A program made the position numbers and the translations under genes. Positions 13,704-22,851 of a stretch of DNA of 64,000 nucleotides are shown piece after piece. Each line of letters opens with the position of its first letter. Positions within the stretch are counted from its first letter, which is position 1. The notes beneath the pieces were generated by a model. The model ran no database searches. It worked only from the letters and a program-made list of their open reading frames with translations, and was not told the DNA's origin. This stretch comes from Phycisphaerales bacterium (GTDB taxonomy: Bacteria > Planctomycetota > Phycisphaerae > UBA1845). Location of the stretch: positions 62,001 through 126,000 of the forward strand of contig JADZBE010000034.1 in NCBI GenBank assembly GCA_020852275.1, in the 5' to 3' direction.

Positions 13704-14972
13704 TCACTTCCCCCCTGACGTTTTCTTCTCCGCGGCGTCCTTCTGCTCGCGCCGGGGGATCGCCTGCAACCGCGCGTCCATGGCGTCGAAAAACTCCACC
13801 ACCGGTTGAAACGCCGCGTGTCCCTCCCGCTTCGCCGGCTCGATCTTGTCCAGCTCCGGCCTATGCGCCCGCACGTACCGATCCGCGCGCTCCGCCATTT
13901 CGTCGAGGATCGAATCCGCCGTCTTCACTTGCGCCGGATCAAGCTGGTACTTGCGCTCGAACTCGCGCACATAAACCACCCACGTGGTCGGATCATGCTT
14001 CAGCCATCGCCCCGCGTCCTTCGCCGCGTCCGATCCGGGCAGTGGCTTGGCGTCCTTGCCCGCGGAAGCCTCGCCGCGCGACCGCGCCGCCTTCATCACC
14101 TGGAGAAACTCGTCTCGCGTCAAGCCGTAGTCCTCGGGCTTGAACTTCCCCTCCGCCGCCAGCGTCCGCATCCGATCGCCATATCCCGTCAGCCGGTTAA
14201 GCGACGCGCGGTCCTTCTCATAGATGCGCTTCTGCTCCGGCGAAAGACCGGCCTCGAAGCCCGATGCGACCCGGTCCAGCGCCTCCATCGCGTCGCGGTG
14301 CAGCGCGTCGGTCTCGCGGACCCAGCCGGCCACCCGCCCCTGCAGCTCGCGCATGAAGGCCTCGTCGTCCGGCGCCTCGATCCGCAGCTCGACCTGCTCG
14401 CGCACCTGCTTGACGATGGTCGGCGAGTGCTTCACGAACAAGCCCGTCAGTTCAGTCATCATGGAAGACTGGACGCCGCTGACCTGCGCGTCCGAAAGCG
14501 TGTATCGATCCTTGAGGAGCTGACCGAAACGGTCGAAACGCTGCGTGATCTGCCACGGAGGAATCTTGGCCACCTCGCGCAGCGTCCGCAGCGCGAACTC
14601 GTCGGACTCGCCCCTCCAGCCGTTCTGGTCCCAGATGCGCACCATCGACCGGTCGATCCACGCGAACTGCTCCTCCCACGGACCGAACTTCTGAATCTCC
14701 TGCGCCGTCTGCAAGAGCCGCTGCCAGCCATTGGCAGGCTCCGCTGTGTCCTGCGCCAGTGCCTGCGGCGAGGTTGCAAGGAAGGCAAGGAGCCACGCCG
14801 GCATGAGCAAGGTAATCAGGAGTGAAGCCGCCCATCGTCGAGACCTCGCGCTCGGTCGTGTCAGGCTCCCGAACGTCGAGACGAAGCACCCGCCGCCACG
14901 CGCGCAAGCCCACGACCGAACGTGGCCCGCATGTGCGTTCACAAAGCGCGAAGCTGTTGGCGTACAGCGCAT
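13704..14972 (-). CDS. Secreted hypothetical protein
   Basis: Long ORF with TM/signal segment LLITLLMPAWLLAFLATSPQALAQ. The start is unresolved and the 5' end abuts the putative tracrRNA terminator. Confidence 0.6.
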   Translation of the reverse strand: MRCTPTASRFVNAHAGHVRSWACARGGGCFVSTFGSLTRPSARSRRWAASLLITLLMPAWLLAFLATSPQALAQDTAEPANGWQRLLQTAQEIQKFGPWEEQFAWIDRSMVRIWDQNGWRGESDEFALRTLREVAKIPPWQITQRFDRFGQLLKDRYTLSDAQVSGVQSSMMTELTGLFVKHSPTIVKQVREQVELRIEAPDDEAFMRELQGRVAGWVRETDALHRDAMEALDRVASGFEAGLSPEQKRIYEKDRASLNRLTGYGDRMRTLAAEGKFKPEDYGLTRDEFLQVMKAARSRGEASAGKDAKPLPGSDAAKDAGRWLKHDPTTWVVYVREFERKYQLDPAQVKTADSILDEMAERADRYVRAHRPELDKIEPAKREGHAAFQPVVEFFDAMDARLQAIPRREQKDAAEKKTSGGK

Positions 14973-14996
14973 AAATAAAGCCCCCACAGGGAGGGC
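14973..14996 (-). terminator. Putative Rho-independent terminator of tracrRNA
   Basis: Minus strand GCCCTCCCTGTGGGGGC followed by TTTATTT. Confidence 0.6.
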
Positions 14997-15107
14997 GGTG
15001 CGGGCAAACCCATGAGAGTCTACCCTGGGCGCTCGCCAGGAGCGTTGCCTTGCGCGGCCGTTTGACCGCTTACTGTGACTTGCGGAAAAACGTCGCTCAG
15101 ATACACT
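14973..15107 (-). ncRNA. Candidate tracrRNA (type II-C)
   Basis: Anti-repeat 15072-15107 is 30/36 identical to the array repeat. On the minus strand: TTGACA (15144-15139), 18 bp, TAAGGT (15120-15115), predicted start near 15107; nexus-like GCGGTC-AAAC-GGCCGC hairpin; CAACGCTC; CCTGG...CCAGG hairpin; CCCTCCC-TGT-GGGGG hairpin followed by TTTATTT. Confidence 0.85.
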
Positions 15108-15114
15108 AACGTGA

Positions 15115-15144
15115 ACCTTACGCTACCGCCCATCCCTTTGTCAA
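15115..15144 (-). promoter_or_regulatory. Putative sigma70-type promoter for tracrRNA
   Basis: Minus strand TTGACA-N18-TAAGGT, about 7 nt upstream of the first anti-repeat nucleotide. The -35 is exact; the -10 matches 3/6. Confidence 0.5.
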
Positions 15145-15155
15145 GAGGTGTGCCC

Positions 15156-18100
15156 ATGAAATCTTTGACGAACCGGAAGCCCTGTTCCCTGGGCTTGGAT
15201 GTCGGGGTTGCATCCATCGGTTGGGCGCTCGTCGCCCAGAATGAGCCCGATCGCCCCGCAGAGCTGATCGGCGCCGGCGTTCACGCCTTCGATGAGGGGG
15301 TCGAAGGCGACATCGAGTCCGGGAGGGATGAAGCCCGCGGGGCTGCTCGGCGCCTTGCCCGGCTGCCCCGCCGGATGTTTTGGCGCCGCCAGCGCCGCAG
15401 ATACAAGCTGCTCCGCCTGCTCCAGCGGGCAGGCTTGCTTCCGGAAGGGGCGATCGGCACGCCGCAGGCGATGCACGAGTATCTGCTCAAGATCGACGCC
15501 CGGCTCCGCGATCAGCACCCCGCCAAGGGCGACCGCATCGCCGCGCACCTGCTGCCCTACAGACTCCGCGTCCGGGCGCTCGATCACGCGCTGACTCCCA
15601 TGGAGCTGGGCCGAGCGCTCTACCACCTTGCCCAGCGCCGCGGGTTCCTCTCCAACCGCAAGTCTCTGACGAAGGACGAGGACGAGGGCGTCGTCAAGCA
15701 GGGCATCGCCGAGCTTCAGGCCAAGATGGACACCGCCGGAGCGCGAACCCTCGGGGAGTACCTCGCCGGGCTGGACCCCGAAACCGAGCGCATCCGCAAG
15801 CGCTGGACAGCGCGGCAGATGTACCTCGACGAGTTCAACCACATCTGGGAGGCCCAGGCGTCGCATCATCCGGCCATCCTGACGCCCACCTTCCGGAACG
15901 ATCTACACCGCGCCATCTTCTTTCAGCGCCCGCTCAAGTCGGCCGCGCACCTCATCGGTCGTTGCGAACTCGTACCCACGGCCCGCCGCGCCGCGACGGC
16001 GGACCGCCTCTTCCAGCGCTTCAGGATTCTTCAGACGGTCAATAACCTGGAGATCATTCCACCGAATGAAGCCTCTCGTCCGCTCGACGCCGCGCAGCGC
16101 GAAAAAGTCATCTCCGCGCTCATCCATGACGGCGACCTGACCTTTGCAAAGATCAAGGGCAAACAGGTTCTCGCCCTGCCGAAGGGATCCGAGCTGAAGC
16201 TCTGGAGTCAGGACGAGGAGAAGAAGCTCCCCGGGCATCGCACCGACGAGAAAATGCGCGCCGTCTTTGGCGACCGCTGGGACGACCTCCCGGAAGAGAA
16301 GCGGGAGGAAATCGTCCTCGAGATTCTCAGTTACGAAAAACCCGACGCCCTCGAACGTCGCGCGATCAAGGCTTGGGGACTTGATCCCGAAAAAGCAAGG
16401 GAACTCGCCGAATTGCGCCTCGAACAGGGCCACGCCGCACACAGCCGCAAGGCCTTGCGCATACTCATCGAGCGGATGTCGGACGGCACGCGCTATGGAA
16501 CAGCGCGGCGGGAGCTGTTCCCCGGGAGTTTCAAATCCTGCGAACCAATTGACCGGCTGCCTCCGCTGCGAAAAGCAATCGGCGAAATCCGCAACCCCGC
16601 CGTCGAGCGCACGCTCACCGAACTTCGCAAACTGGTCAACGAAATCGTCCGCGTCTTCGGCAAGCCTGAGATCATCCGCATCGAACTCGCCCGCGACCTC
16701 AAGCGCGCCCGCAAGGAACGCGAGCGCCTGTCAAAGGAGAACGCCGCGCGGGAGAAGCTCCGTCTGAAGGCCAAGGCGAGAATCCTCGCCGAAGCCGGCG
16801 TGCAGGAACCGCGCCGCTCGGATATCGAAAAGGCCCTGCTCTGGGAAGAATGCGAAGGAGAGTGCCCGTACACGGGTCAGTCCATCCCCTTCGCCTCCCT
16901 CTTCGGACCGGCGCCGCAGTTTGACGTCGAGCACATCCTTCCCTTCAGCCGCTCGCTCGACAACAGCTTCCTCAACAAGACCCTCTGCGCCGTCGCCGAA
17001 AACCGCGACCACAAGCGCAACCGCACGCCCTTTGAAGCCTACTCAACCGACATGAAGCGCTACGAGGACATCCTCGCCCGCGTCCAACGCTTCAAGGGCG
17101 ACGCCGCGGAGGTGAAGCTGCGACGCTTCGAAATGCAGCAAATCCCCGAGGACTTCGTCTCGCGCCAGCTCAACGACACGCGCCACGCCGCCGTCAAAGC
17201 CGCCGACTATCTCGCGCTCCTCTACGGCGGGCGCACAGACGCCAACGGCCGCCTCCGCGTACAGGTCTCCGCCGGCGGACTCACCGCGCACGTCCGCAAC
17301 GAACTCGGGCTGAACGGCATCCTCGACGACGGCGGACAGAAGACCCGCGAAGACCATCGCCACCATGCCGTCGACGCAATCGTCGTCGCCATGCTCGGAC
17401 CGAAGCAGGTGCATATCCTCCAGACGGCCGCGGAGCGCGCTTCCGCCGCAGGGCGAAGGCTGTTCGCGCCCGTCGAAGAACCTTGGATCGGCTTCCTCGA
17501 CGACGCGCGCAAAGCCATCCTCGCCATCAAGGTCTCCTGGCGACAGGACCGCAAGCTCGCCGGAGGCCTGCACGAGGAAACCAACTACAGCGCCAAGGAG
17601 CATCCGCACGCGGACAAGAAGGGGCAGCCGAAGCCGCATCGCCACGTGCGCAAACCTGTGGACACCATGTCGGAATCTCAGGTCGATGACATTGTGGACC
17701 CCGTCATCCGCGAGCGCGTCCGTGAGTGGATCGTCCGACGCGACGCCAAGGATGATTCCGTCAAGACGCCCTGCCCCGTGACTCACACTCACGATGGCCG
17801 CGAGATTCCCATCAAGACCGTCCGCATCCGCAAGAACGTCGGTGTCGAACCGGTCGGATTGGATCGAACGCCCGAAGGCCCGAAACACGGTGCACGCACG
17901 CGCTATGTCAAGCCCGGCGCCAACCACCACACCGTCATCGTCGCCACGATCAAGAGGGGCCACGATGGAAACGAGACCGAGACCCGCTGGGACGATTACC
18001 CCGTCACACGCCTCGAAGCCCACCGCCGAAAGGCCGGGGGACTGCCGATCATCCAGAAAGACTGGGGCGAGAACCGGATGGTCAAGTTCACGCTGACTAG

Positions 18101-18335
18101 AAACGAGTACCTGCTCATCAAGGACGCGGATGGCGGCGATAGGCTGATTCGCTGCATCAGCGTCTCCGACGGCGCGAACGAGTTCCGACTGCACTCTGAC
18201 GCGCGCTCCGCCACCGAAGCAAGAAAGCCCGGCAGCGGCGCGCGAATCGGCCTGAGTGGCGAGAATATGCGAAAACGCGGGGCGCGGAAGGTCCGCGTCA
18301 CCTATATCGGCGAGGTCATCCCCTGCCATGACTGA
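15156..18335 (+). CDS. cas9: CRISPR-associated endonuclease Cas9, type II-C, 1,059 aa from the first ATG
   Basis: RuvC-I SLGLDVGVASIGWALV; Arg-rich bridge helix RRMFWRRQRRRYKLLRLLQ; RuvC-II KPEIIRIELARDLKRARKERE; HNH CPYTGQ...FDVEHILPFSRSLDNSFLNKTL...ENRDHKRNRTPFE; RuvC-III HHAVDAIVVAML. Confidence 0.97.
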   Translation: MKSLTNRKPCSLGLDVGVASIGWALVAQNEPDRPAELIGAGVHAFDEGVEGDIESGRDEARGAARRLARLPRRMFWRRQRRRYKLLRLLQRAGLLPEGAIGTPQAMHEYLLKIDARLRDQHPAKGDRIAAHLLPYRLRVRALDHALTPMELGRALYHLAQRRGFLSNRKSLTKDEDEGVVKQGIAELQAKMDTAGARTLGEYLAGLDPETERIRKRWTARQMYLDEFNHIWEAQASHHPAILTPTFRNDLHRAIFFQRPLKSAAHLIGRCELVPTARRAATADRLFQRFRILQTVNNLEIIPPNEASRPLDAAQREKVISALIHDGDLTFAKIKGKQVLALPKGSELKLWSQDEEKKLPGHRTDEKMRAVFGDRWDDLPEEKREEIVLEILSYEKPDALERRAIKAWGLDPEKARELAELRLEQGHAAHSRKALRILIERMSDGTRYGTARRELFPGSFKSCEPIDRLPPLRKAIGEIRNPAVERTLTELRKLVNEIVRVFGKPEIIRIELARDLKRARKERERLSKENAAREKLRLKAKARILAEAGVQEPRRSDIEKALLWEECEGECPYTGQSIPFASLFGPAPQFDVEHILPFSRSLDNSFLNKTLCAVAENRDHKRNRTPFEAYSTDMKRYEDILARVQRFKGDAAEVKLRRFEMQQIPEDFVSRQLNDTRHAAVKAADYLALLYGGRTDANGRLRVQVSAGGLTAHVRNELGLNGILDDGGQKTREDHRHHAVDAIVVAMLGPKQVHILQTAAERASAAGRRLFAPVEEPWIGFLDDARKAILAIKVSWRQDRKLAGGLHEETNYSAKEHPHADKKGQPKPHRHVRKPVDTMSESQVDDIVDPVIRERVREWIVRRDAKDDSVKTPCPVTHTHDGREIPIKTVRIRKNVGVEPVGLDRTPEGPKHGARTRYVKPGANHHTVIVATIKRGHDGNETETRWDDYPVTRLEAHRRKAGGLPIIQKDWGENRMVKFTLTRNEYLLIKDADGGDRLIRCISVSDGANEFRLHSDARSATEARKPGSGARIGLSGENMRKRGARKVRVTYIGEVIPCHD

Positions 18336-19347
18336 GCGCATCATCGACCTCGCCGAGTCCGCTGCGTACCTGCACGTCCGCAACCGGCAACTGGTCATCG
18401 AGCGCCATCCGAGCCGCGGGCTTCAGTCCGCGCGAACCCACGATCCCGACGGCACTTCCGATTCCGCGGATGCACCGGTCACTCCGGCGGACTGGGGCGT
18501 GGAAGTCCCAACCCCCACCGAGCTCGCCGTCCCCCTCTGCGAAGTCGCCGCCCTCATCGTCGCTCACCCGCAGGTGCAGTGCTCGCAGCCCGTGCTCGCC
18601 GAACTCATGAATGCCGGCACCGCCTTCATCGTCTGCGACGCCCGCTCGCTCCCGGTCGGCATGATGCTCCCGCTGAGCGCCAATACGGTTCAGGCGCAGC
18701 GCCTCATCGCACAGGCTTCCGCGCCCCTCCCCCTCAAAAAACAGCTCTGGAAGCAGATCGTCCGCCGCAAGATCACCGCGCAGGCGGAACTGCTCACCGA
18801 GCTGCGCGGCGGCGACCACGGCCTTGCCGACCTTGCCCGCGACGTGCGCTCCGGCGACCCCGACAACCGCGAGTCCGTCGCCGCCCGGCGCTATTGGCCC
18901 GTCCTCTTCGACGATCCCAACTTCCACCGCCGCTTCGACGCCCGCGACGCCAACCGCCTGCTCAATTACGGGTACGCCGTCCTCCGCGCCGCCATGGCGC
19001 GGGCCATCTGCGGAGCGGGTCTGCACCCCACGCTCGGCCTGCACCATCATCAACGCGACAACCCCTTCTGCCTGGCCGACGACTTGATCGAGCCTTACCG
19101 CCCGCTCATCGACGCCGCCGTCGTCGAGCACGTCCGCGAGAACCGCGGGACGGAGCTGGACCGCATCGGCAAACAGTCGCTGCTCGAGGCCGTTCTTGCG
19201 CGGTACGACGCCGATGGCGAAGTCCGCACCCTGTTCGACTTGTGCGCCCGCACGGCCGTCTCGCTGGTCCAGACGCTCGAACGACAAACCGATCGTCTTG
19301 ATTATCCGAAGAAACTGGGTGAAGCGCCTTCAGCGCCGCGCCCGTAA
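18328..19347 (+). CDS. cas1: CRISPR-associated integrase Cas1 (type II), 339 aa
   Basis: 8-bp overlap with cas9 (ATGACTGA). LWKQIVRRKITAQAELL, YWPVLFDDPNFHRRFDARDANRLLNYGYAVLRAAMARAICGAGLHPTLGLHHHQRDNPFCLADDLIEPYRP. Confidence 0.96.
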   Translation: MTERIIDLAESAAYLHVRNRQLVIERHPSRGLQSARTHDPDGTSDSADAPVTPADWGVEVPTPTELAVPLCEVAALIVAHPQVQCSQPVLAELMNAGTAFIVCDARSLPVGMMLPLSANTVQAQRLIAQASAPLPLKKQLWKQIVRRKITAQAELLTELRGGDHGLADLARDVRSGDPDNRESVAARRYWPVLFDDPNFHRRFDARDANRLLNYGYAVLRAAMARAICGAGLHPTLGLHHHQRDNPFCLADDLIEPYRPLIDAAVVEHVRENRGTELDRIGKQSLLEAVLARYDADGEVRTLFDLCARTAVSLVQTLERQTDRLDYPKKLGEAPSAPRP

Positions 19348-19438: not shown

Positions 19439-19783
19439 GTGCCCTCGACCCAGGTCGCCCTTTCCGGATATCGCCCCGTGTGGCTGTTCGCCATGTTTGA
19501 TCTGCCCGTTAAGACCCCCGCCGATCGGAAGCGCTACGCGCGGTTCCGCAAGTTGCTGCTTAACGACGGGTTCTGTATGATGCAGTATTCCGTTTACGCG
19601 CGGTACTGCGCCAGCGAGGAGACCGCCGCCGTGCACCGGCAGCTTGTGCGCGAGGGCGTGCCGGACGAGGGGCAGGTTCGGCTGCTGGCCGTGACCGACC
19701 GGCAGTTCGGAAAGATGGAGAATTACATTGGAAAAAAGCGAAAGCCGGCGGAGGAGCCCCCCCGCCAGCTCATGCTTTTCTAG
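19439..19783 (+). CDS. cas2: CRISPR-associated endoribonuclease Cas2
   Basis: YRPVWLFAMFDLPVKTPADRKRYARFRKLLLNDGFCMMQYSVYARYC; located between cas1 and the array. GTG start. Confidence 0.95.
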   Translation: MPSTQVALSGYRPVWLFAMFDLPVKTPADRKRYARFRKLLLNDGFCMMQYSVYARYCASEETAAVHRQLVREGVPDEGQVRLLAVTDRQFGKMENYIGKKRKPAEEPPRQLMLF

Positions 19784-19832: not shown

Positions 19833-21716
19833 AGTGTATCTGAGCGACGCTTCCCGGCAAGCCACAGCGTGGTTTCTGAGGATGTTCGGGGGTGCATAAG
19901 TGTATCTGAGCGACGCTTCCCGGCAAGCCACAGCGGCGACGACAGCACCCAGACGGCGGGCTAAGTGTATCTGAGCGACGCTTCCCGGCAAGCCACAGCA
20001 TGCTCATCATCCTTCATGGGCAAAGATTGTAGTGTATCTGAGCGACGCTTCCCGGCAAGCCACAGCTGGTCGGACGCGCGGTCGTGTCCATCTCCGAGTG
20101 TATCTGAGCGACGCTTCCCGGCAAGCCACAGCCGCCGGACGGGTTGCCGATAGGCTTCACGTAGTGTATCTGAGCGACGCTTCCCGGCAAGCCACAGCAC
20201 GGAATGGAACACGCCGAATGGCTCTTGAAAGTGTATCTGAGCGACGCTTCCCGGCAAGCCACAGCGGTAATGCGTAGTTGGTTTTCCCCGTCCCAAGTGT
20301 ATCTGAGCGACGCTTCCCGGCAAGCCACAGCTTATCGGCGTCGCTGCGCCGGGCCGGGCAGAGTGTATCTGAGCGACGCTTCCCGGCAAGCCACAGCTTA
20401 TCGCACTCGCCGGTGCGTGCCTGCTGGAGTGTATCTGAGCGACGCTTCCCGGCAAGCCACAGCCGCGCGGGAATCGAACCCGCGCCGCGACGTAGTGTAT
20501 CTGAGCGACGCTTCCCGGCAAGCCACAGCAGGGGTTCGAGGGCACGATTCAAGCCTTCTAGTGTATCTGAGCGACGCTTCCCGGCAAGCCACAGCACCGG
20601 GACACGGACACGAAATCAGCCAGCAAGTGTATCTGAGCGACGCTTCCCGGCAAGCCACAGCGCATACGTTCAAGGGCCCGGCAATTCGATGAGTGTATCT
20701 GAGCGACGCTTCCCGGCAAGCCACAGCTGAGGATCAGTACTATACGCCGGTGTCGGGAGTGTATCTGAGCGACGCTTCCCGGCAAGCCACAGCTTCGAGG
20801 GCAGCGGGGAATTGTACGCTTCGAGTGTATCTGAGCGACGCTTCCCGGCAAGCCACAGCGGCTCCGCTGTGCGGCGTCCTCACCACGCTAGTGTATCTGA
20901 GCGACGCTTCCCGGCAAGCCACAGCAGTGCGGTAACGCCTGAAATCCCCCTCGTAGTGTATCTGAGCGACGCTTCCCGGCAAGCCACAGCGGAGTGGAGG
21001 CTGTATCGTGATTCGCATCAAGTGTATCTGAGCGACGCTTCCCGGCAAGCCACAGCATGAAAAACTACGGCATCCTGCTGGGCATAGTGTATCTGAGCGA
21101 CGCTTCCCGGCAAGCCACAGCGGATTCAGGCCGGCACGATTGCCAAGGAAGAGTGTATCTGAGCGACGCTTCCCGGCAAGCCACAGCGTGAGCGGGGATG
21201 CTAGTTCGTTGTTGGCTAGTGTATCTGAGCGACGCTTCCCGGCAAGCCACAGCTTGAACGTTCCCGGCAATCGCATGATCCGCGAGTGTATCTGAGCGAC
21301 GCTTCCCGGCAAGCCACAGCCAAAGACGGCGTCGCCGATGTCAAGCCCGTAGTGTATCTGAGCGACGCTTCCCGGCAAGCCACAGCACGTTTGTGATGGC
21401 GGTGGGGTGGCGGTTGAGTGTATCTGAGCGACGCTTCCCGGCAAGCCACAGCGGTGCGTTGTTTGGTATTGTCGTGGGGGTGAGTGTATCTGAGCGACGC
21501 TTCCCGGCAAGCCACAGCGCTGTGCGGGCAGCCCATCCACCGTGATTGAGTGTGTCTGAGCGACGCTTCCCGGCAAGCCACAGCTTCCTCGACAAGAGCG
21601 ACCACAAGGCAAATAGTGTATCTGAGCGACGCTTCCCGGCAAGCCACAGCCAAAGCACACTGCTCGCAGAGCAGTGGCACAATGTATCGGAGCGACGCCC
21701 CCGCACTGTCACTCCT
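19833..21716 (-). CRISPR. CRISPR array: 28 full 36-bp repeats plus 1 degenerate terminal repeat, 28 spacers (29-31 nt)
   Basis: Plus-strand repeat AGTGTATCTGAGCGACGCTTCCCGGCAAGCCACAGC. Repeat starts: 19833, 19899, 19964, 20031, 20097, 20163, 20230, 20296, 20362, 20428, 20494, 20560, 20626, 20692, 20758, 20824, 20890, 20955, 21021, 21086, 21152, 21218, 21285, 21351, 21417, 21483, 21549 (one A-to-G change), 21615, and degenerate 21681. Minus strand assigned from the tracrRNA wobble pattern. Confidence 0.98.
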
Positions 21717-22266
21717 TTTCCTTGCCCGAATACGTGCCGTCGCGCGTGTTTACGCGGATGAGGTCGCCGGTTTTGATGAACAGCGGGACTTGGAGCTTCA
21801 GTCCGTTCTCCAGCTCGGCCTCCTTCTGCACGCTGGAGCCGACGCCGCTGTGCGAGGGGCCCGCGGTGAGCGCGACGTGCAGTTGCGCCGTGTCCGGCGC
21901 GTCGAAGCGCACGGGGCGACCCTCGACGAACATCACGCGGTAGGCCTCGCCTTCCAGCATGAACGGCGTGAACGAGCCGATGAGGGTCCCGGGCAGCTTG
22001 AGTTCCTCGAACGTCTCCGAGTCCATGAAGATGTAGTCGTCGCCGTGGTGGTAGAGGTATTGCACCTGGCGGTAGGTGTATTCCGCTTCGACGACGGGGG
22101 TCAGCTCGTCGAGCGTGCGATCGACCTGGCGCCCGTCGATCAGGTCGCGCAGCGCGACGTGGACGTTGGGCCGCCCTCGACCCGTGTGCCGTTCGTGAAA
22201 GTCGGAGACGATGAAGAGGTGGTTCTGGTGACGCAGGACCATGCCCCGCTTGAGCGGAGTGTTCAT
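21709..22266 (-). CDS. efp: Elongation factor P
   Basis: KRGMVLRHQNHLFIVSDFHERHTGRGRPNVHVALRDLIDG, QYLYHHGDDYIFMDSETFEEL, C-terminal VQVPLFIKTGDLIRVNTRDGTYSGK-type EF-P ending. Confidence 0.92.
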   Translation of the reverse strand: MNTPLKRGMVLRHQNHLFIVSDFHERHTGRGRPNVHVALRDLIDGRQVDRTLDELTPVVEAEYTYRQVQYLYHHGDDYIFMDSETFEELKLPGTLIGSFTPFMLEGEAYRVMFVEGRPVRFDAPDTAQLHVALTAGPSHSGVGSSVQKEAELENGLKLQVPLFIKTGDLIRVNTRDGTYSGKEKE

Positions 22267-22851
22267 TGCAGCGCCTCCTGATTTGACCTGCGGACGCGCG
22301 GAACGTTCAGCGCTATCATACCTTCGCGCTGCGGCCATGCCTACGAAGAGTCGTGTTTTTCAAGGACGCCGTCGCACAACGGAGCCGCGACCGTGAGACG
22401 CTTCGCGCAGGATAACCAAGCCTAGCCCATGAGGGATCAAGTGTTCTCCAACGAAACCGCGGGTTCTGACACAGCTTATATCCCTCTCTCCAAGGCCACC
22501 GCGTATCGCGACTCGAGATCCCCCGGGCGCGGCTCGCATCCCGCTCGGTGCGGGAAGGTTGGCAATTCGCGGGCCAGAACCGGGCTTGGGCCGGCGGTTG
22601 AGAGCTGGTGGTTGGGGCTGGCGGCTTGGGCTGGCGGCTTGGGGCAGGCGGATCAGCTCGTTTTCCCCGCGCAGGCGGGGATCCTGTTCGTCGCGGAACG
22701 ACAGGTTACCCGGACGTCCAACTCCTCGCGGGGCCACGGGCGAAGCGGGCATCCTGAACGTCAGGGAGCGGCAGGCGCACGCAGCCTGTGGTGACCGGGC
22801 TACAGACGGAGGTTCCGGCTTGTCGACTCAGAACGACGCCAAAGAAACACC

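What the first reader, a model, noticed from the sequence alone, without database searches (positions are those of the whole stretch)
14973..15107. tracrRNA encoded divergently from cas9; six repeat/anti-repeat differences reveal strand
The + strand 15072-15107 is ACTGTGACTTGCGGAAAAACGTCGCTCAGATACACT; the minus-strand array repeat is GCTGTGGCTTGCCGGGAAGCGTCGCTCAGATACACT (30/36 identical). Five differences are G in the repeat versus A here. If both RNAs come from the minus strand, these become G.U wobbles and only one C.C mismatch remains in a 36-nt duplex. In the opposite orientation they become five A.C mismatches plus a G.G. The same strand also has TTGACA-N18-TAAGGT ending about 7 nt before the anti-repeat, a GCGGUC-AAAC-GGCCGC nexus-like hairpin, CAACGCUC (also seen in Neisseria-type tracrRNA), a second hairpin, and a terminator hairpin with TTTATTT.
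Basis: partly seen in the sequence, partly recalled or inferred. Interest (0 to 1): 0.8.

Follow-up and report, generated by a model that had tools for sequence, protein, structure and literature searches.

The report
Ordinary type II-C Cas9 tracrRNA gene

Summary
The minus strand 15107→14973 carries a textbook tracrRNA gene: a 36-nt anti-repeat pairing over 35 of 36 positions with the array repeat (-60.1 kcal/mol; -48.7 in the opposite orientation), a TTGACA-N18-TAAGGT promoter 7 nt upstream, a nexus-like stem, further hairpins and a terminator. It lies head-to-head with a type II-C cas9-cas1-cas2 operon whose 28-repeat array is read against the cas genes. No other anti-repeat was found in the assembly. 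The tracrRNA promoter is conserved (62/69 loci, 9 expected from shuffles). A profile of only the tracrRNA body, trained without the window's genus, has one hit in 64 kb: this place and strand. All this matches published II-C architecture, so it is a new member of a known kind. Open points: whether the anti-repeat's other strand helps drive cas9, and why G·U pairs sit so regularly at crRNA positions 1 and 7. Expression is inferred.

The parts
14973..15107 (-). tracrRNA gene, about 135 nt, predicted 5' end near 15107 and 3' end at the T-run 14979-14973
   Evidence: anti-repeat, promoter, hairpins, terminator; body-only profile hit at 15077-15034 minus; conserved in relatives
15072..15107 (-). 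anti-repeat: pairs with the crRNA repeat over 36 nt (30 Watson-Crick, 5 G·U with G in the crRNA, one C·C)
   Evidence: only copy outside the array in the assembly
15139..15144 (-). -35 hexamer TTGACA of the tracrRNA promoter (next to the cas9 ribosome-binding site AAGAGGTG)
15115..15120 (-). -10 hexamer TAAGGT of the tracrRNA promoter, 18-nt spacer, 7 nt before the anti-repeat
15054..15069 (-). first stem after the anti-repeat (nexus-like), GCGGUC-AAAC-GGCCGC
   Evidence: paired in all 7 aligned sequences, A-U/U·G exchange at one pair
15027..15049 (-). second hairpin GG..CGCUC-CUGGC-GAGCG.CC containing most of the conserved CAACGCUC
   Evidence: pairs invariant in 7 sequences
15002..15025 (-). 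10-bp hairpin present only in the window's nearest relatives (Cas9 at least 65% identical)
   Evidence: absent in L051 and L053
14973..14996 (-). intrinsic terminator: 6-bp stem then TTTATTT
   Evidence: a terminator stem with a T-run follows in most relatives
15156..18335 (+). cas9, 1059 aa, type II-C
   Evidence: TIGR01865 E=4e-191; Cas9_a, HNH_4, RuvC_III in Pfam; conserved D15, H593, H736, D740
18328..19347 (+). cas1 (in-frame ATG at 18328 overlaps the cas9 stop)
   Evidence: TIGR03639 cas1_NMENI E=3e-71
19439..19783 (+). cas2
   Evidence: TIGR01573 E=9e-19
19833..21650 (-). CRISPR array, 28 repeats of 36 nt, spacers 29-31 nt, transcribed on the minus strand; each repeat ends TACACT with TTGCCG 16 nt upstream (possible repeat-internal promoter)
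21681..21716 (-). degenerate extra (oldest) repeat: keeps the -10 half, has lost the Cas9/tracrRNA-binding half; overlaps the 3' end of the EF-P-like gene

Best explanation
This is the tracrRNA gene of a type II-C CRISPR-Cas9 system. RNA polymerase starts at a sigma-70-type promoter squeezed between the anti-repeat and the cas9 start codon and transcribes leftwards, away from cas9. It makes an RNA of about 135 nt: a 36-nt anti-repeat, a nexus-like stem, two further hairpins and a terminator. Array RNAs come from the same strand, so each repeat pairs with the anti-repeat over the whole 36 nt. The perfect distal part would be cut by RNase III or left uncut; the wobble-containing proximal part stays in the Cas9 complex as the repeat:anti-repeat stem, and the hairpins dock on Cas9, which then cuts DNA matching the spacer. 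Shown here: sequence, pairing, strand bias, conservation, promoter and terminator motifs, linkage. Inferred from known II-C systems: transcription, processing, Cas9 binding, interference.
For: Unique anti-repeat in the assembly. Duplex energy -60.1 against -48.7 kcal/mol for the opposite strand. Directional wobbles 216:18 over 68 loci; without positions 1 and 7 still 116 against at most 18; 65 loci against 1. Promoter motif in 62/69 loci against 9.0 in shuffles, typically ending 6-7 nt before the anti-repeat. Profile of the body alone, without the window's genus, has one hit in the window, minus strand 15077-15034, E=0.005, and in 8 loci without an array it hits the minus strand just upstream of cas9. 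Stems 95.4% paired against at most 51% when slid. In 69 of the 91 array-bearing loci the best anti-repeat lies upstream of cas9 in the same orientation, and 8 more match there through the other half of the repeat. Neighbours are cas9-cas1-cas2-array without csn2 or cas4.
Against: No RNA data. The single-strand fold of the body is only moderately better than shuffles (z=-1.8). The -10 hexamer TAAGGT is weak and the sigma-70 scan does not pass it. No Rfam family matches. Helix covariation is modest (3 pairs changed on both sides), and a structural model of the body could not be built well because the automatic alignment was poor.
Confidence: 0.96

Rival explanations
1. Tracr and array RNAs both come from the plus strand: the tracrRNA would read rightwards into cas9.
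For: The anti-repeat is nearly as complementary in sequence, and the -48.7 kcal/mol duplex is still stable.
Against: Wobble direction 216:18 against it; the terminator, stems and conserved body lie on the minus strand; the plus strand runs straight into cas9; published II-C arrays run against cas (PMC6737040, PMC3936727).
Confidence: 0.02
2. The anti-repeat is a decayed, stray copy of an array repeat without function.
For: It is 83% identical to the repeat and lies near the array.
Against: Identical in species whose Cas9 differs by 16-20%; in relatives it follows changes of the repeat, keeping the distal 17 nt nearly perfectly complementary; promoter and body are conserved.
Confidence: 0.01
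3. The element is tracrRNA and also regulates cas9: the plus strand of the anti-repeat keeps the repeat-internal promoter (TTGCGG-N16-TACACT), which starts cas9 mRNA near 15114, so that the two overlapping promoters exclude each other. This is an addition to the best explanation, not an alternative to it.
For: Median distance from anti-repeat to cas9 is 51 nt, most of it taken by the tracrRNA promoter, leaving little room for a separate cas9 promoter; the TANANT hexamer is kept by pairing.
Against: The -35 is only 3/6; TTG at the right spacing survives in 13 of 25 near and 5 of 44 far relatives, so it is no general rule; no transcription data; a cas9 promoter inside or beyond the tracrRNA gene is as possible.
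Confidence: 0.2

Closest known systems
Neisseria meningitidis Nme1Cas9 tracrRNA/sgRNA (type II-C; sequence in PMC6594998)
   Same: The body begins AAUAAG/AGUAAG straight after the anti-repeat stem; CAACGCUC shared letter for letter; G·U as the first repeat:anti-repeat pair; a terminal hairpin. The Cas9 is most similar to 1082-1092-residue Cas9 entries such as 6kc8 among solved structures, which I know as Nme Cas9.
   Different: Here CGCUC of that motif can pair with GAGCG; a 10-bp extra hairpin follows; the duplex is unbroken over 36 nt except one C·C.
Type II tracrRNAs surveyed in uncultivated microbes (PMC10278012)
   Different: Those authors predicted both directions in some cases; here direction follows from wobble asymmetry across relatives.
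II-C array architecture with repeat-internal promoters and a mutated extra repeat (PMC12080349)
   Same: Repeats end in TANANT, the array runs against cas, the degenerate repeat is at the cas-distal end and has lost the first (Cas9-binding) half.
   Different: The extra repeat here overlaps the 3' end of an EF-P-like gene read towards the array.

Membership tests
tracrRNA (type II CRISPR-Cas) | anti-repeat complementary to the array repeat, outside the array | tested here: met
   35 of 36 positions pair, -60.1 kcal/mol; unique in the assembly
tracrRNA (type II CRISPR-Cas) | located near cas9/the array | tested here: met
   48 nt from the cas9 start; same place in relatives
tracrRNA (type II CRISPR-Cas) | own promoter and 3' terminator | tested here: met
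   motifs present and conserved in position; activity not shown
tracrRNA (type II CRISPR-Cas) | nexus-like stem and 3' hairpins after the anti-repeat | tested here: met
   sequence profile hit
tracrRNA (type II CRISPR-Cas) | expressed, co-processed with crRNA, bound by Cas9 | not testable with these tools
   needs RNA and protein experiments
type II-C CRISPR-Cas | cas9, cas1, cas2 only (no csn2, no cas4) | tested here: met
   three cas genes then the array, no room for another
type II-C CRISPR-Cas | Cas9 and Cas1 of the Neisseria kind | tested here: met
   cas1_NMENI 3e-71; closest solved chains 6kc8 and kin 1e-63; not Cas9d: NF049971 147.8 bits, cut-off 375
type II-C CRISPR-Cas | array transcribed against the cas genes, promoter in each repeat | tested here: inconclusive
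   strand strongly indicated; TANANT at repeat end in 60 of 63 distinct repeats, TTG 16-17 nt upstream in 46; no transcription data
Rfam RNA families | match to a curated covariance model | tested here: not met
   no match at gathering level in the window, none at E<=1 in 14700-15400

The most novel reading that the evidence does not exclude
The anti-repeat is a two-faced element: on one strand tracrRNA, on the other a repeat-derived promoter for cas9, overlapping the tracrRNA promoter so that RNA polymerase can make only one of the two at a time; the regular G(crRNA)·U(tracrRNA) pairs let the DNA drift from the repeat while keeping RNA pairing.
Probability: 0.15. Interest if true: 0.5.

Novelty: new member of a known kind. 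Interest (0 to 1): 0.2.

Why it matters
It gives a complete, strand-resolved guide-RNA set (repeat, tracrRNA ends, array direction) for a compact 1059-aa Cas9 from a planctomycete lineage, enough to design a dual guide for testing. It also gives a worked, large-sample case that G·U asymmetry between repeat and anti-repeat tells the transcribed strand from DNA alone, useful for arrays whose direction is undecided.

Tried and rejected
Rfam at gathering level and at E<=1: nothing. Cas9 as a single protein in genome contigs: no confirmed relative; the alignment query worked. A covariance model of the tracrRNA body from automatic alignments gave only 4 pairs, and a trimmed set was misregistered in the loop, so I used a sequence profile instead. 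The array against phage records: no match. Spacer 10 resembles a tRNA T-arm; no copy outside the array in the assembly with up to 3 mismatches, so no self-targeting seen. The repeat-derived cas9 promoter as a general rule: rejected, since the -35 TTG is lost in most distant relatives. A plus-strand tracrRNA: rejected. Paper search for wobble in II-C repeat/anti-repeat pairs: no hit in the held library, which is not proof that it is unreported.

Full report
What is there. The window holds cas9 (15156-18335, 1059 aa, TIGR01865 E=4e-191), cas1 (18328-19347, cas1_NMENI E=3e-71) and cas2 (19439-19783) on the plus strand, followed by an array of 28 repeats of 36 nt with spacers of 29-31 nt and one degenerate repeat at 21681-21716. 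No csn2 or cas4 lies between, so gene content is type II-C. Closest solved Cas9 chains are 6kc8 and kin (1e-63), which I know as Neisseria meningitidis Cas9. Named relatives of 80-84% Cas9 identity are Phycisphaerae MAGs.

The observation. The plus strand 15072-15107 matches the minus-strand repeat at 30/36 positions; nothing else in the locus outside the array exceeds 20/36, and in the whole assembly the element occurs only here and in the array. If both RNAs are read from the minus strand, 35 of 36 positions pair (30 Watson-Crick, 5 G·U), with one C·C; RNAduplex gives -60.1 kcal/mol against -48.7 for the other orientation and a mean of -18.0 for shuffled anti-repeats.

Test of the strand argument. 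I collected Cas9 loci from the order, the phylum and public genomes and virus contigs, found their arrays and anti-repeats, and aligned each pair with a strand-neutral score. In 69 of the 91 loci with a usable array the best anti-repeat is upstream of cas9 in the window's orientation, and in 8 more the other half of the repeat matches there in the same orientation. In 68 usable loci, the window included, substitutions that become G·U under minus/minus number 216, under plus/plus 18; the base composition of the repeats would give 58% against 42%. By locus it is 65 against 1 with 2 ties. Relatives share ancestry, so these counts are not independent events and the binomial P-values in that output should not be taken at face value, but even without the two commonest positions 116 remain against at most 18. 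Of the 216, 203 have G in the crRNA and U in the tracrRNA; position 1 (53/68) and position 7 (47/68) of the repeat stand out. Differences are concentrated in the half next to the guide (180 wobbles and 141 transversions in positions 1-18, 36 and 26 in 19-36), so the distal half is nearly perfect duplex, as an RNase III substrate should be (inference).

Promoter, body, terminator. Upstream of the anti-repeat, TTGACA-like and TATAAT-like hexamers 16-18 nt apart are found in 62 of 69 loci against a mean of 9.0 in shuffled upstream regions, mostly ending 6-7 nt before the anti-repeat. In the window the -35 touches the cas9 ribosome-binding site. A profile built from the body alone, leaving out nearly all of the anti-repeat and the window's genus, finds exactly one place in the window up to E=10: 15077-15034 on the minus strand, E=0.005; in loci without a detected array its 8 hits are all minus-strand and just upstream of cas9. 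The stems are 95.4% paired over 7 sequences, against 32-51% when the partner is slid; the first stem shows an A-U/U·G exchange. The 10-bp hairpin at 15025-15002 occurs only in the window and its four nearest relatives. Single-sequence folding is only mildly better than shuffles (z=-1.8).

Comparison with the known. Nme1Cas9 sgRNA as printed in PMC6594998 shares the UAAG start of the body, CAACGCUC and the G·U first pair. PMC3936727 and PMC6737040 report that II-C arrays run against the cas genes; PMC10278012 reports tracrRNAs most often upstream and reversed; PMC12080349 states that II-C repeats carry their own promoters, that spacers are added at the last repeat and that the extra repeat is often mutated in its first 15 nt. 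The window fits all of these: distinct repeats of relatives end in TANANT (60 of 63) with TTG 16-17 nt upstream in 46, and among 26 complete arrays the cas-distal end repeat is the more degenerate in 8 and the cas-proximal in 1. It is therefore a new member of a known kind, with expression and processing inferred.

What stays open. What drives cas9 is unclear: the gap between anti-repeat and cas9 is mostly filled by the tracrRNA promoter (median 51 nt). The plus strand of the anti-repeat keeps TTGCGG-N16-TACACT, which could serve, but the -35 part is not conserved in distant relatives, so I give this 0.2. Why G·U pairs recur at positions 1 and 7 is not explained; C-to-U drift tolerated by pairing is the plain account, recognition by Cas9 the other.

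Noticed in passing
21681-21716 and 21709-22338: The degenerate extra repeat keeps the -10 half but its Cas9-binding half is replaced and overlaps the 3' end of an EF-P-like gene (PF01132, minus strand) that is read towards the array.
   Followed up: partly
21651-21680: The oldest spacer contains a perfect 8-bp hairpin (CACTGCTC GCA GAGCAGTG), which could disable that guide or act as an insulating hairpin.
   Followed up: no
array spacer 10, about 20464-20493: Spacer CGCGCGGGAATCGAACCCGCGCCGCGACGT resembles a tRNA T-arm; no second copy in the assembly with up to 3 mismatches.
   Followed up: partly
15002-15025: A 10-bp hairpin between the second hairpin and the terminator in the window and four near relatives only.
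   Followed up: partly
13704-14825, minus strand: ORF co-oriented with the tracrRNA, starting about 150 nt beyond its terminator, with a signal-peptide-like start and no Pfam match.
   Followed up: no
L211, L212, L213, L214: Contigs listed as viral carry type II-C-like cas9 loci; in L211 and L212 the anti-repeat is also upstream of cas9. They may be host DNA in the viral collection.
   Followed up: no
L053: Cas9 reading frame with two internal stops while anti-repeat, promoter and array remain.
   Followed up: no
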